From positions 1 through 20,615 of IMG/VR virus record IMGVR_UViG_3300028388_001501: a stretch of 20,615 bases of DNA. One strand, 5' to 3'. This document shows positions 2-19,449 of this stretch, one piece after another. Position 1 is the stretch's first letter. Each line of letters begins with the position of its first letter. Position numbers and translations under genes: made by a program. This stretch comes from a virus. The notes under the pieces are model-generated. The model was given only the letters and a program-made list of their open reading frames with translations. It made no database searches and was not told where the DNA came from.

Positions 2-1223
2 GACATGAATCGACGCGGGGTGGCGATCGACCGGGCCGCAGCCTCCACGATGAAAGAGACCGGTGAGCGGGAGAAGGACCGCCTGTCCCGAGAGATCGAA
101 CGGGAGTTCGGGTTCACGCTCGGACAGGTTTCCCAGATCGCATCCTACTTGGATCTCGACAGCGTGGCCAAGGCACCGCTGCGTGACCTTCTGAAAGACC
201 CCTCGTTACCCGACGATCAGCGCCGGGTGGGAGAGGCGCGTCAGACCTTCGCCAAGACGTCCCTGAACAAGCTGCCCGCGTTCCTCGGCCGGTCAGAGAC
301 GGACGGACGGGCTCGAGGCAATCTGATCTACGGCGGAGCGGAACGGACCGTCCGGTGGAGCGGTGCCGGCATACAGATGCAGAACTTGACCCGAGGACTG
401 GGCCAGGCGCAGGACATCGCGTTCGCGGCGCTGCAAGCGGGCTTGTTCGAATACCTCTACGAAGATGAGATCATCGACACCCTGTCTGGGATGCTCCGCG
501 GTCTGATCCGCGAAGCACGCGGCCTGCTGATCGGAGACTACGCGCAGATCGAGGCGCGCATGTTGGCGTGGCTGGCGGGGGACGAGGATCACCTTGACGA
601 GTTTCGGCAAGGATTAGACCCTTACCGCATTATGGCCGCAGCTATTTACCGTGTTCCAGTAGAAAATGTTACGCAATATCAACGTTTTATGGGAAAGCAG
701 GCGCGACTCGGAAGTGGTTACGGCCTCGGACACAACGGGTTCCGCACCATGCTCGACCAGACCTATGACGTGCAGATCCCGGTCAGCGAAGCGAAAACCG
801 TCACCGAGGCGTATCGCAAGAACGCGCCGAAGATCGAAGCTGACCGAGATGCACATCATCCTGCCGAGCCTCCGCCGCCTGCGCTATTACCAGGTGAAGC
901 TGGAGATGAAAGAGAACGGATTTACCAGCTGGACGTGTTTCGGCAAGCTGAAAAACAGCCCCAATTACGGCCGCGTGTCTATCTACGGCGGCGCGTTGAC
1001 CGGCCACATCACGCAGTCCACCGCCCGGGATGTCATGGCGCACGCCATCATCTCCCTGTGGCGCGATGGGGCTCCGCTCATCCTGACGGTCCACGACGAG
1101 ATCGTCAGTCTGAAAGACCGCACGCTGGAGCAGTTCTCCCGCGCAATGGAAACACCACCCGCATGGCTGACCGATTTCCCTTTGAAGGTCGATGCGTTTG
1201 AAACCGAGAGGTATCGTAAGTGA
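2..1223 (+). CDS. polA: DNA polymerase I (family A), C-terminal polymerase domain, 5'-partial and frame-broken
   Basis: Phage replicative polymerase. The frame is open at the left edge, so the N-terminal part (any 3'-5' exonuclease domain) lies outside the window. Visible motifs: motif A near 535-560 (GDYAQIEARM), motif B near 691-730 (KQARLGSGYG) and motif C near 1093-1107 (VHDEIV), the last in a different frame. The first frame (codons from 2) is convincing until about 835 (YRKNAPKI); homology resumes from about 843 in the +1 frame (LPSLRRLRYY, then YGGALTGHITQSTARD) and ends at TGA 1221-1223. Family members normally have some 35-40 residues between these two points, so both a frame change and a loss of sequence are inferred. 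The stop overlaps the next start (GTGA), so the 3' end is intact. The family call is firm; whether the gene is functional is unknown. Confidence 0.85.
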
Positions 1224-2230: not shown

Positions 2231-2520
2231 CGCTCGAGTCGCGCATCGAAGCCCGGGCCGTCGTCGAACTGGCGAAGATCGGCGCGCTGGCGATCAAGGT
2301 CGGCACATCCGGCTGGCCAGACCGGTGCGTCGTCTACGCCCCGGGCCGATGCGTGTGGATGGAGTTCAAAAAGCCGGGCGGCGCGATTCGGAAGCAGCAG
2401 AAGATCCGGAAAAAGGAACTGAACAAGATCGGTCACGAGGTTTTCTATCCCACCTCGTGGCGCGAGGCGGTCGGGATTGTCGCGGCGGCGCGGAGGCGAA
2501 TTGATGCTCGGTCTCGCTGA
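2227..2520 (+). CDS. VRR-NUC domain nuclease
   Basis: A 97-residue stand-alone VRR-NUC protein (PD-(D/E)xK superfamily). Visible catalytic pattern: Glu8 in the first helix, Gly-Trp-Pro-Asp32, and Glu46-Phe-Lys48 (WMEFKKPGG), followed by a basic helix with Gln residues (RKQQKIRKKEL). Such small phage nucleases are found beside SNF2-like helicases, as here, and are thought to process branched replication or recombination DNA. ATG 2227 overlaps the previous stop (ATGA), and its own end overlaps the helicase start by 17 bases. The family is clear; the precise DNA substrate is not. Confidence 0.88.
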   Translation: MTLESRIEARAVVELAKIGALAIKVGTSGWPDRCVVYAPGRCVWMEFKKPGGAIRKQQKIRKKELNKIGHEVFYPTSWREAVGIVAAARRRIDARSR

Positions 2521-4668
2521 CCTTTCCCCGATCCAGACCGATGCGATCGACGCGATCCAGCAGAGAGAACGCCTGGCGGTGTGGTCGAAACCCGGATCGG
2601 GAAAGACTGTCATCGCGCTGACCGCGGTGGAACAAATGTTCCTGTCTCGCACGTTGATCGTCGGAACGAAGCGCATCGTGGAGCTCGTGTGGCGCCAGGA
2701 GGCTGCGAAGTGGGCTCATCTGGCACACTGCACCATGGATCTGCTCACCGGCTCTCCTGCGCGCCGTGAACGCGTCCTGCGTGAGTCCACGGCCCGGTAC
2801 CTGCTCATCAACTACGAGCTCATTCCGTGGCTGCTGGACACACTGGGGCGCGACCTGTCGATGTTCGACGCGATCATCTTCGACGAGCTCTCCAAGATGA
2901 AATCGCCCAGCGCGAAGCGGTTCAAGAAAATGCGCCGGCCGATCACCGAAGTGCCGGTTCGGATCGGCCTGACAGGGACACCTCGTGGGAACTCTCTCAT
3001 GGGCCTGTGGTCGCAGACCTACTGCACCCACGGGCCTGTTCTCGGTGAGACATTCACGCACTTCAAGACGCGGTATTTCTTCCCGGTCGACCAGCGCCGC
3101 GTGATCTGGATTCCCTACGCAAACACCGAAGCCGATCTGCGGGAGAGGATGAAGCCTTACGCCTATGCCACGCCGCCAGAAGCTGCGTCTCCAGAGGCCA
3201 AGATCAACCTGATCCCTGTCGACCTACCGAAGCCTGTTCGGACGCTCTACGAGACGCTCCAGACGGAACTGGAGGTGGAACACAAGGGGATCGAAATCAC
3301 CGCGATCGAACCGGCGCAGATGCGCAACAAGCTGATCCAGATCGCCAGCGGAGCCATTTACCACGGGCTGGAGAAAGAGTGGGTCGATCTTCACCCCGCC
3401 AAGACAGATGCCTTGGGTGACCTTACCGACGATCTTCAGGGGGAGCAGCTTCTGGTGTTCTTTCGCTATCGACACGAGTTCGAGCGCATCCAGAAACGCA
3501 TCCCGGGTGTGGTCGGTATCGACAAGGTCGACGCATGGCTCGACGGGAAGCACCAGGTGCTGTGTGTTCATCCGGCGTGTCTTGCTTCTGATACTTTAGT
3601 CTTGACTGAAAAATCAGGGTGGAAGGCAAAAGAAACGTGATCGATATTGACGGAGTTAGAATGACTCCTGACCATAGGATTTTGGTTGGCGAGAAATGGA
3701 AAGAAGCAAGATTTGTTCAAGATCATAAAGAACTTAGAAGAGCGCTACTACCGGCGCCCAAAAGCCCGTCCTCAAAAGCAAGTTCAGGCAGAGTGCCTGA
3801 CGTGCGGTCATGTAGATATTCATTTACTTCAGAATGTAGTTCGCTCGAATCGATTGGAACGTCAATATTGCAAAGAATGCTATCCAGATTCTCTTCACGG
3901 AATGTCCAAAAGTCGGATATACCGAATTTGGAGACATATGGTAGCAAGAACTACAGATTCTCGATATTCTGGATACAAAAATTATGGAGCAAGAGGCATC
4001 CAGTGTTGCAACAGATGGATGTCTTTTTCCAATTTTTATTCGGATATGGGCGGTTCTTACCAAGAAGGTTTAACTCTGGAGAGGATAGACAACAATGGTC
4101 CTTACTCCCCGGAGAACTGCCGGTGGGCCTCCAATCTAGAGCAGCAAAAGAACAAGAGGAACAATCGCTGGGTGAAAACGGGAAACGGATGTATTCACTT
4201 AGCCGAGTTTTGCCGGAAAAACGAAGTGAGCCGAGGAGCCATAACCCCTTATCTGGAAGAAACCAACGACGATGGAGACGCAGCCCTAGCTTTGTACCGG
4301 ACGTCAACGTACCCACAGGGGAGGAAGTCGAGGTCTACGATCTCGTAAACTGCGGTCCTCGAAACAGGTTCATGGTAAAGACCTCCAGCGGGAACGCTCT
4401 TATAGTTCACAACTCAGCTGCGCATGGCTTGAACCTCCATGTCGGAGGCGCCTCGCAGGCATGTTGGTTCTCGCTTCCGGAGAGCCAGGAGTTGTGGGAG
4501 CAGGGGAACCGTCGGCTCGCCCGAAAAGGCCAGAAAAAACAGGCTATCTCTCACGTCTTGTTTGCAGTAAACACAAAAGAGCAGCAGGTGGCAGACGCAT
4601 TGAAGTCGCATGGCCAACTGCAAGACCTGTTGATGGAGACGGTTCATGCCCAAGACCAACACTCTTGA
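2504..4668 (+). CDS. SNF2/DEAD-type phage helicase interrupted by an intein and a frame change
   Basis: Superfamily 2 ATPase. N-extein (2504-3577, 358 residues): Q-like motif [14 protein letters not shown], Walker A KPGSGKT with Lys34, motif Ia LIVGTKR, motif [10 protein letters not shown] near 2878-2901, motif III LTGTP near 2968. C-extein (4414-4665, 84 residues): motif V continuing from HPA into SAAHGLNL, then motif [13 protein letters not shown]. Joined, the exteins give about 442 residues, a normal length for the phage family. Start ATG 2504 has GGAGG seven bases upstream; TTG 2477 is a poorer choice. The two exteins are in different frames: reading on from the N-extein ends at TGA 3638-3640, 20 residues into the intein. 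Without splicing of both parts (or correction of the sequence) the enzyme would lack motif VI and be inactive. Confidence 0.85.
3578..4413 (+). other. Intein in helicase motif V, N-terminal part shortened and frame-shifted
   Basis: Self-splicing protein element. Block A begins with Cys1 at 3578 ([15 protein letters not shown]), directly after HPA. Block B is [13 protein letters not shown] at 3652-3690, with the TxxH motif (Thr 3664, His 3673). Blocks F and [14 protein letters not shown] to ALIVHN at about 4333-4413, end in His-Asn and are followed by Ser+1. The catalytic set (Cys1, block B His, final His-Asn, Ser+1) is therefore present. Block A is in the N-extein frame; blocks B to G are in the -1 frame relative to it, switching between about 3619 and 3637. 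Only about 30 residues separate Cys1 from the TxxH motif, where 60 or more is usual, so some 25-30 residues appear lost. The region is much more AT-rich than its neighbours. It resembles known phage inteins, but functional status is uncertain. Confidence 0.85.
3686..4348 (+). CDS. Homing endonuclease-like protein nested in the intein in another frame
   Basis: A 220-residue ORF starting at TTG 3686 (AGGA six bases upstream, a weak ribosome site). Residues 37-65 hold two Cys pairs (Cys37/Cys40 and Cys62/Cys65), a probable zinc ribbon. Residues 77-160 match a common phage nuclease type annotated HNH endonuclease: [21 protein letters not shown], then [17 protein letters not shown] and a basic EQQKNKRNN. 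Residues 168-190 ([20 protein letters not shown]) look like a helix-turn-helix for site recognition. It overlaps block B at its start and blocks F/G at its end, in the +1 frame relative to the intein. A free-standing endonuclease would cut intein-less helicase genes and so spread the intein. The family name is by motif memory; the catalytic residues are not proven. Confidence 0.75.
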
Positions 4669-18810: not shown

Positions 18811-19449
18811 TCAGATCGCCTCCGAAAGCGGGCGTGTCGGTAGGGCCGTGATCGACGACCCGTTTTCTCCGACAAAGTTGGTCACCCGCACGCCGGCCTG
18901 CTCAAGTTGAGGCGCAGCAATGTCAAAGTCTCGAGCCCAGCGGCGAATCTGATGGTCGCTCCTCTGGCGATACCAGTGATACTCCTCGTGCCAGTGCGGC
19001 TGCTCGGGCGTGAACCTGAAGTCAAACCCAAGCAGGCGAATATCGGTGGCCCCCGAAAGAAACGCCACGTTCAAAGCCGCAAACCCTGAATTTAGGCCGT
19101 AAATCATGTGTGGCGCCTGGGATAACCCTCGGCCCCGCTTGAATTGCAAATGGACGATCTCGTCGGGAAATGTTGTCGCAAGCGGCATGTCAACGGGCAA
19201 CGCGGCATATACCATACGTCCCTCACGGACCGCGGCGACCAGATCTTCTATCCTGTGCCGGTAGTAGTTCCGGTCCAGGGTAACAATCATGTCGGCTTTG
19301 GAGAGTCTTCCAGCGTCGTTCGCTCCGATCTTCGTGATCTCAGGGTCGAGCGTGTCGAAGTCAAAATCGACCAGAGAAGGCCCGCCTCCGATGACGTATA
19401 CCGGCTGGCCTTCCAGTGACCGGGCAACCTGTCCATATTCACGGTCCAT
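18811..19449 (-). CDS. DUF115/MptE-like Rossmann-fold protein
   Basis: A 212-residue protein. A glycine-rich loop near residues 17-27 (VYVIGGGPSLVDFDF) starts a Rossmann-like fold, followed by IGANDAGRLSKADMIVTLDR and GLNSGFAALNVAFLSGATDI-RLLGFDF, the most conserved region, and a C-terminal QLEQAGVRVTNFVGENGSSI. Proteins with this GGGPSL, Ala-Asn-Asp and GFDF pattern fall near DUF115 and 6-hydroxymethylpterin pyrophosphokinase MptE-like proteins. In phages and bacteria they sit with glycan-modification genes. Substrate unknown. It is inserted between two connector genes with TGATG and one-base junctions, so it is co-expressed with virion proteins. Confidence 0.65.
   Translation of the reverse strand: MDREYGQVARSLEGQPVYVIGGGPSLVDFDFDTLDPEITKIGANDAGRLSKADMIVTLDRNYYRHRIEDLVAAVREGRMVYAALPVDMPLATTFPDEIVHLQFKRGRGLSQAPHMIYGLNSGFAALNVAFLSGATDIRLLGFDFRFTPEQPHWHEEYHWYRQRSDHQIRRWARDFDIAAPQLEQAGVRVTNFVGENGSSITALPTRPLSEAI

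What the first reader, a model, noticed from the sequence alone, without database searches (positions are those of the whole stretch)
3619..4413. Homing endonuclease written in a different frame inside an intein whose own frame stays open
Intein blocks B, F and G share one frame (codons from 3619). The endonuclease-like ORF (3686-4348) lies fully inside, in the +1 frame. Free-standing or in-frame endonucleases are the known arrangements; an out-of-frame nested gene with the intein frame uninterrupted across about 200 codons is unusual. The open frame is not trivial: in this frame a stop arises whenever an endonuclease codon ending in T precedes Lys, Asn, Asp, Glu or AGN. By hand I count about 60 such positions between 3700 and 4290, and none has T, although roughly a quarter of all its codons end in T. 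This suggests selection to keep both frames readable, so the intein could be translated with an overprinted spacer while the endonuclease is made separately from TTG 3686. Overlapping endonuclease genes are known in introns; I know of no clear intein case.
Basis: partly seen in the sequence, partly recalled or inferred. Interest (0 to 1): 0.85.

Follow-up and report, generated by a model that had tools for sequence, protein, structure and literature searches.

The report
Endonuclease gene nested out-of-frame inside intein
In a large family of phage inteins (self-splicing protein inserts), the mobility enzyme that spreads the insert is written in a shifted reading frame on the same DNA, and the intein's own frame is kept free of stop codons across it; the copy in this window belongs to that family, but its splicing part is damaged.

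Summary
The overlap is real. Window 3686-4348 encodes an HNH endonuclease in the +1 frame of an intein frame that stays open to the C-extein. Synonymous shuffling gives 14.9±2.6 stops in the intein frame (minimum 4 in 20,001 shuffles); observed 0. Relatives show this is the rule: of 109 distinct open inteins, 94 (88 clusters at 85% nt) carry HNH in +1, 6 in +2, none in frame. In 68 tested +1 members there are 0 stops where 463 are expected; 39 free-standing HNH homologues show 502 against 530. Only openness seems selected: the overprinted peptide is ~50% identical in pairs whose HNH is ~76%, and it is predicted disordered between confident splicing blocks. A Shine-Dalgarno-like stretch plus ATG/GTG/TTG just after block B points to internal initiation of the endonuclease.

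This copy lacks about 79 nt between blocks A and B, so the helicase stops at 3640 and the intein probably cannot splice. Named phages have the arrangement (APSE-1 P45/P46, Sodalis SO-1 gp38/gp39). I found no paper describing it for inteins; ShiLan (2025) is the non-intein analogue, and two likely sources could not be read.

The parts
2477..3577 (+). N-extein: SF2 (ResIII/SNF2-like) phage helicase, frame 2, ending in ...LCVHPA at motif V
   Evidence: Pfam ResIII 9.6e-10, PHROG 62 DNA helicase 2.7e-72; intein-free relatives L001-L007 align across the junction without a gap
3578..3640 (+). Intein block [21 protein letters not shown], in the N-extein frame; ends at TGA 3638-3640
   Evidence: 80% identical to L010 over the first 15 residues
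3620..3630 (+). Approximate breakpoint of the missing ~79 nt between blocks A and B (net frame change)
   Evidence: DNA alignment with 12 relatives at the same insertion site; exact breakpoint not determined
3631..3699 (+). Intein block B region, [23 protein letters not shown], frame 1
3700..4320 (+). Overprinted spacer: intein frame (frame 1) kept open across the HNH gene
   Evidence: 0 stops against 14.9 expected over 3686-4345
3686..4348 (+). HNH homing-endonuclease ORF in frame 2 (+1 relative to the intein): N-terminal Cys-rich part, HNH core, C-terminal helical part; stop 4346-4348
   Evidence: PHROG 3377 4.8e-41 and PHROG 374 1.6e-37; AF2 mean pLDDT 87.8
3713..3715 (+). TTG at the position of the ATG/GTG start in relatives at this site; the SD that most of them carry (GAGG/GGAGG) is degraded here to GAAAGAAG
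   Evidence: inference for the window copy
4327..4413 (+). Intein blocks F and [30 protein letters not shown], frame 1
   Evidence: profile match 55 bits
4414..4668 (+). C-extein of the helicase, [12 protein letters not shown]..., frame 1
   Evidence: 45-55% identical to L001-L007; PHROG 62 5.2e-16

Best explanation
This is a member of a phage intein family in which the HNH homing endonuclease is a separate gene nested between splicing blocks B and F in the +1 frame of the intein. In intact members the ribosome reads the host gene straight through: extein, Hint N-half, a disordered overprinted spacer, Hint C-half, extein. The precursor then splices. A second ribosome start, at an ATG/GTG/TTG just after block B behind a Shine-Dalgarno-like stretch embedded in intein codons, makes the endonuclease on its own. 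The endonuclease presumably cuts intein-free alleles and so spreads the element. Selection removes stop codons from the intein frame but hardly constrains the spacer peptide. The window copy keeps the nested pair but lost about 79 nt between blocks A and B, so its helicase ends at 3640 and splicing is probably lost. Shown: anatomy, frame rule, stop avoidance, start signals, fold predictions. Inferred: splicing, internal initiation, cutting and homing.
For: Frame rule: 94 distinct inteins with HNH in +1, 6 in +2, 0 in frame, 6 mini-inteins without HNH, 3 longer ones without a recognisable HNH. Stop avoidance: 0 against 463 expected in 68 members, control 502 against 530 in 39 free-standing HNH homologues; T at codon position 3 before AA/AG/GA is 0.75% in nested genes (26 of the 30 cases match the stop count of one mis-registered locus, L130) against 22.9% elsewhere, while free-standing genes give 26.7% and 25.5%. 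Window: 0 against 14.9 (sd 2.6). Openness only: HNH 4-fold divergence 0.49, HNH aa identity 0.76, overprinted intein-frame aa identity 0.50, intein N+C identity 0.81. Fold: L088 intein frame pLDDT mostly above 90 in residues 1-90 and 280-307, mostly below 50 between; Foldseek matches mini-inteins such as Mtu RecA and Ssp DnaB. Start signals: 90 of 96 have a usable start in the HNH frame; SD energy <= -4 kcal/mol in 68, against 10 and 8 in the two other frames of the same stretch, p about 1e-12. HNH and splicing domains co-vary (Mantel r 0.71, 0 of 2000 permutations). Window damage.
Against: No splicing, translation or cutting was tested. Some members lack a good SD or have only CTG at the expected start. 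Relatives were found through conserved intein blocks, so very divergent or in-frame forms could be missed. The start-signal comparison lets the number of candidate codons differ between frames. The window deletion may be an assembly error, because polA in the same contig also changes frame near 850.
Confidence: 0.88

Rival explanations
1. The endonuclease was originally in frame and two indels (real or sequencing errors) moved it.
For: The window and L010 both carry frame lesions, and metagenome contigs can hold errors.
Against: 94 distinct open members have exactly the same +1 relation and none is in frame, including sequenced phage isolates APSE-1, Caulobacter RW and Shewanella SFCi1.
Confidence: 0.01
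2. The open second frame is a chance product of composition or HNH codon usage.
For: G+C-rich HNH genes have fewer expected stops (2-3 in some members).
Against: 0 against 463 expected in 68 members; 502 against 530 in free-standing homologues; 0 of 20,001 shuffles for the window, whose HNH core is 46% G+C.
Confidence: 0.005
3. In the window the two overlapping ORFs (2477-3640 and 3619-4668) form a split intein with a very short N-part (20 aa) that trans-splices, like atypically split inteins.
For: Block A ends in its own ORF and the second ORF has a GTG start at 3619 overlapping the stop.
Against: About 26 residues of the Hint core (RITDVNLNDRVFDGVEFVHHDGCQFS in L010) are in neither ORF; all 12 relatives at the site encode this segment in one frame with block A.
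Confidence: 0.05
4. The helicase is made from the window through a -1 ribosomal frameshift near GCAAAAGAAACG before the stop at 3638.
For: An A-run lies just before the stop, and a -1 shift there leads into the block-B frame.
Against: The product would still lack about 26 Hint residues; no relative uses a frameshift here.
Confidence: 0.04
5. The insert is a group I intron carrying an HNH ORF, as the depositors of Sodalis phage SO-1 wrote for a similar insert.
For: HNH ORFs are common in phage group I introns; SO-1 gp38/gp39 is annotated so.
Against: No Rfam intron match in the window, L088-L091, L125 or L010; all splicing blocks of an intein are present and the frame is open through the insert.
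Confidence: 0.02

Closest known systems
Canonical large inteins with an in-frame homing endonuclease (LAGLIDADG, or HNH as in Synechocystis GyrB; from general knowledge)
   Same: Hint splicing blocks A, B, F, G; endonuclease located between B and F; host genes are replication genes
   Different: Here the endonuclease is not fused to the intein but encoded in another frame; the in-frame product between B and F is a disordered spacer
ShiLan domain (PMC11855218, Genes 2025)
   Same: Out-of-frame HNH endonuclease inside an insert that is open in the host gene's frame
   Different: ShiLan has no splicing motifs and is held not to be an intein; host is a methylase; found in mycobacteriophages
APSE-1 P45/P46 and Sodalis phage SO-1 gp38/gp39 (GenBank annotations)
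   Same: DNA polymerase with splicing blocks and a nested HNH ORF annotated as a separate gene
   Different: In SO-1 the HNH is in the other alternate frame and the insert was annotated as a group I intron; neither record was presented as an out-of-frame intein endonuclease
Split inteins with a free-standing endonuclease between the halves ('fractured genes', recalled, not checked here)
   Same: Endonuclease encoded apart from the splicing domain
   Different: Here the intein is contiguous in one frame and overlaps the endonuclease gene
Gosselin et al. 2025 preprint 'Actinobacteriophage Inteins: ... Non-Canonical Architecture' (cited in PMC11855218) and Gorbalenya 1998 'Non-canonical inteins'
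   Same: Titles suggest unusual intein architectures; either may describe this arrangement
   Different: Neither text was available, so no comparison could be made

Membership tests
Intein (Hint protein-splicing element), for the family | Blocks A and B, F and G, with Cys1, block-B T-x-x-H, C-terminal HN and Cys/Ser +1 | tested here: met
   C1, H58, H306, N307 invariant in 36 members; +1 residue is C or S in most
Intein (Hint protein-splicing element), for the family | One reading frame through N-extein, intein and C-extein | tested here: met
   109 distinct open elements
Intein (Hint protein-splicing element), for the window copy | One reading frame with complete Hint core | tested here: not met
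   Block A in another frame and ~79 nt missing between A and B
Intein (Hint protein-splicing element) | Excises itself and joins the exteins | not testable with these tools
   needs expression
HNH homing endonuclease | Sequence match to the HNH endonuclease family | tested here: met
   PHROG 3377 4.8e-41; weak link to an HNH homing endonuclease structure, 1u3e (E 0.38); no Pfam HNH model and no PDB fold match
HNH homing endonuclease | Sporadic presence against intein-free alleles of the same gene | tested here: met
   Intein-free helicases L001-L007 with an intact HPA|S junction, and intein-bearing L010, L085, L120-L132, L151, L180 at the same site
HNH homing endonuclease | Cuts the empty insertion site | not testable with these tools
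   needs an in vitro cleavage assay
Group I intron | Conserved intron RNA structure | tested here: not met
   No Rfam intron match
ShiLan-type insertion | Out-of-frame HNH in a host-frame-open insert without splicing motifs | tested here: not met
   Splicing motifs are present
Split intein | Two ORFs together encoding a complete Hint domain | tested here: not met
   ~26 Hint residues absent from both window ORFs

The most novel reading that the evidence does not exclude
A widespread phage intein family, at several distinct sites in DNA polymerase I, helicase and terminase-like genes, never fuses its homing endonuclease: it is always overprinted in another frame, and selection acts on the intein frame only to exclude stop codons. 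The endonuclease is started internally, so its dose is uncoupled from splicing. The architecture arose more than once, because both alternative frames occur.
Probability: 0.7. Interest if true: 0.8.

Novelty: new variant of a known kind. Interest (0 to 1): 0.72.

Why it matters
It changes how mobile inteins are recognised. Annotators have ruled out an intein because the endonuclease was out of frame (Felix O1 paper, PMC3185647) or called such an insert an intron (Sodalis SO-1). It supplies about 100 natural cases of a conserved overlapping gene pair in which one partner seems constrained only to stay open, a clean system for overprinting and for how an endonuclease invades a mini-intein. It also makes a prediction that can be tested directly: one DNA stretch should yield both a splicing precursor and a separate nuclease.

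Tried and rejected
Pfam Intein_splicing search of the window's record: no hit. DNA-level search of phage records with the window region: no match. Group I intron: no Rfam intron hit. Foldseek of the HNH model: no significant match. Literature: Gorbalenya 1998 and the Gosselin preprint are not held. Indels, chance openness, split intein and frameshift were considered and rejected or rated low. Extra selection on the spacer peptide was looked for through 4-fold sites and not seen.

Full report
What is in the window. The sequence is a 20.6-kb phage contig (PHROG hits to polymerase, dCMP deaminase, helicase, endolysin and tail genes). An SF2 helicase (2477-3577) is interrupted at motif V after HPA. 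Intein-free relatives L001-L007 align across this junction without a gap. The insert begins with block [17 protein letters not shown], in the helicase frame, which stops at 3640. Block B, blocks F/G and the C-extein lie in another frame, open from 3619 to 4668. Inside that, in the +1 frame of block B, is an HNH endonuclease ORF (3686-4348; PHROG 3377, E 4.8e-41; AF2 pLDDT 87.8).

Is the open frame more than chance? In the window 64 endonuclease codons stand before AA, AG or GA, 46 of them could end in T without changing the protein, and none does, although 54 of 220 codons end in T. Synonymous shuffles give 14.9 (sd 2.6) stops, never fewer than 4 in 20,001.

Relatives. Profiles of the intein blocks and of the HNH retrieved about 100 further elements from viral contigs, bacterial genomes and phage isolates. 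Profile searches of all three forward frames give 109 distinct inteins with N and C blocks in one open frame: 94 with HNH in the +1 frame (88 clusters at 85% identity), 6 with HNH in the +2 frame, 6 mini-inteins without HNH, 3 longer ones without a recognisable HNH, and none with HNH in frame. Hosts are DNA polymerase I at several sites, SF2 helicases at several sites and terminase-like genes (gene names beyond polA and the helicases judged by eye from extein sequence). Isolates include APSE-1 (P45/P46, both annotated), Caulobacter phage RW, Shewanella phage SFCi1, Gardnerella and Streptococcus phages, and, in the other frame, Sodalis SO-1, Salmonella SE2 and Pseudomonas MR14.

Selection. Across 68 +1 members the intein frame has 0 stops against 463 expected from synonymous shuffling; the third frame has 631 against 598. 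Thirty-nine free-standing HNH homologues have 502 against 530 in the same frame, none open. T in the third position is avoided only where it would make a stop. In 17 pairs of +1 members the HNH protein is 76% identical with 4-fold divergence 0.49, as free as the intein's own non-overlapping 4-fold sites (0.43), while the overprinted intein-frame peptide is only 50% identical. The constraint on the second frame therefore looks like 'no stop' rather than a particular peptide. AlphaFold agrees: splicing blocks mostly above 90, spacer mostly below 50; the model matches mini-inteins in the PDB.

How the endonuclease is made. In 90 of 96 members the HNH frame has an ATG/GTG/TTG near the end of block B that is open into the HNH. 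Anti-SD pairing of -4 kcal/mol or better precedes it in 68, against 10 and 8 for start codons in the other two frames of the same stretch. At the helicase site the commonest pattern is GGAGG or GAGG, about six bases, then ATG/GTG, inside the intein codons W-x-E-A-x-N-V. Internal initiation is the best explanation, but it is an inference.

The window copy is damaged. Compared with 12 relatives at the same site, about 79 nt between blocks A and B are absent, removing ~26 Hint residues and changing frame. Its endonuclease start corresponds to TTG 3713 with a weak SD. L010 has a different lesion that shifts both frames together near 1630. polA in the window also changes frame near 850, so decay or assembly error are both possible.

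What is known. The ShiLan domain (PMC11855218) is an out-of-frame HNH in an open, non-splicing methylase insert. In the held papers I found no description of the arrangement for inteins. Two works with telling titles could not be read, so priority is open. I file it as a new variant of mobile inteins; the window itself is a damaged member.

Noticed in passing
window 5-1223: DNA polymerase I changes frame near 850 and seems to lack the usual segment between 'YRKNAP' and 'LPS(G)R'; a second frame lesion in the contig.
   Followed up: partly
L085 675-3716: Helicase with two inteins: one that by eye looks like a canonical large intein in the Walker A region, and a VYDL-type one at motif V whose HNH is internally deleted.
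   Followed up: no
L090 (Sodalis phage SO-1 gp38/gp39): Annotated as a type I self-splicing intron, but has intein blocks and an open frame with HNH in the +2 frame; probably a misannotation.
   Followed up: partly
L089 (APSE-1 P46): P46 is annotated to start about 220 nt downstream of the conserved SD/GTG start near block B, so the gene model may be too short.
   Followed up: partly
L010 1557-2129: Related helicase intein in which one indel near 1630 shifts the intein and HNH frames together.
   Followed up: partly
window 18811-19449: Match to a PHROG described as alpha-2,3-sialyltransferase (5.9e-20), unusual among tail and connector genes.
   Followed up: no
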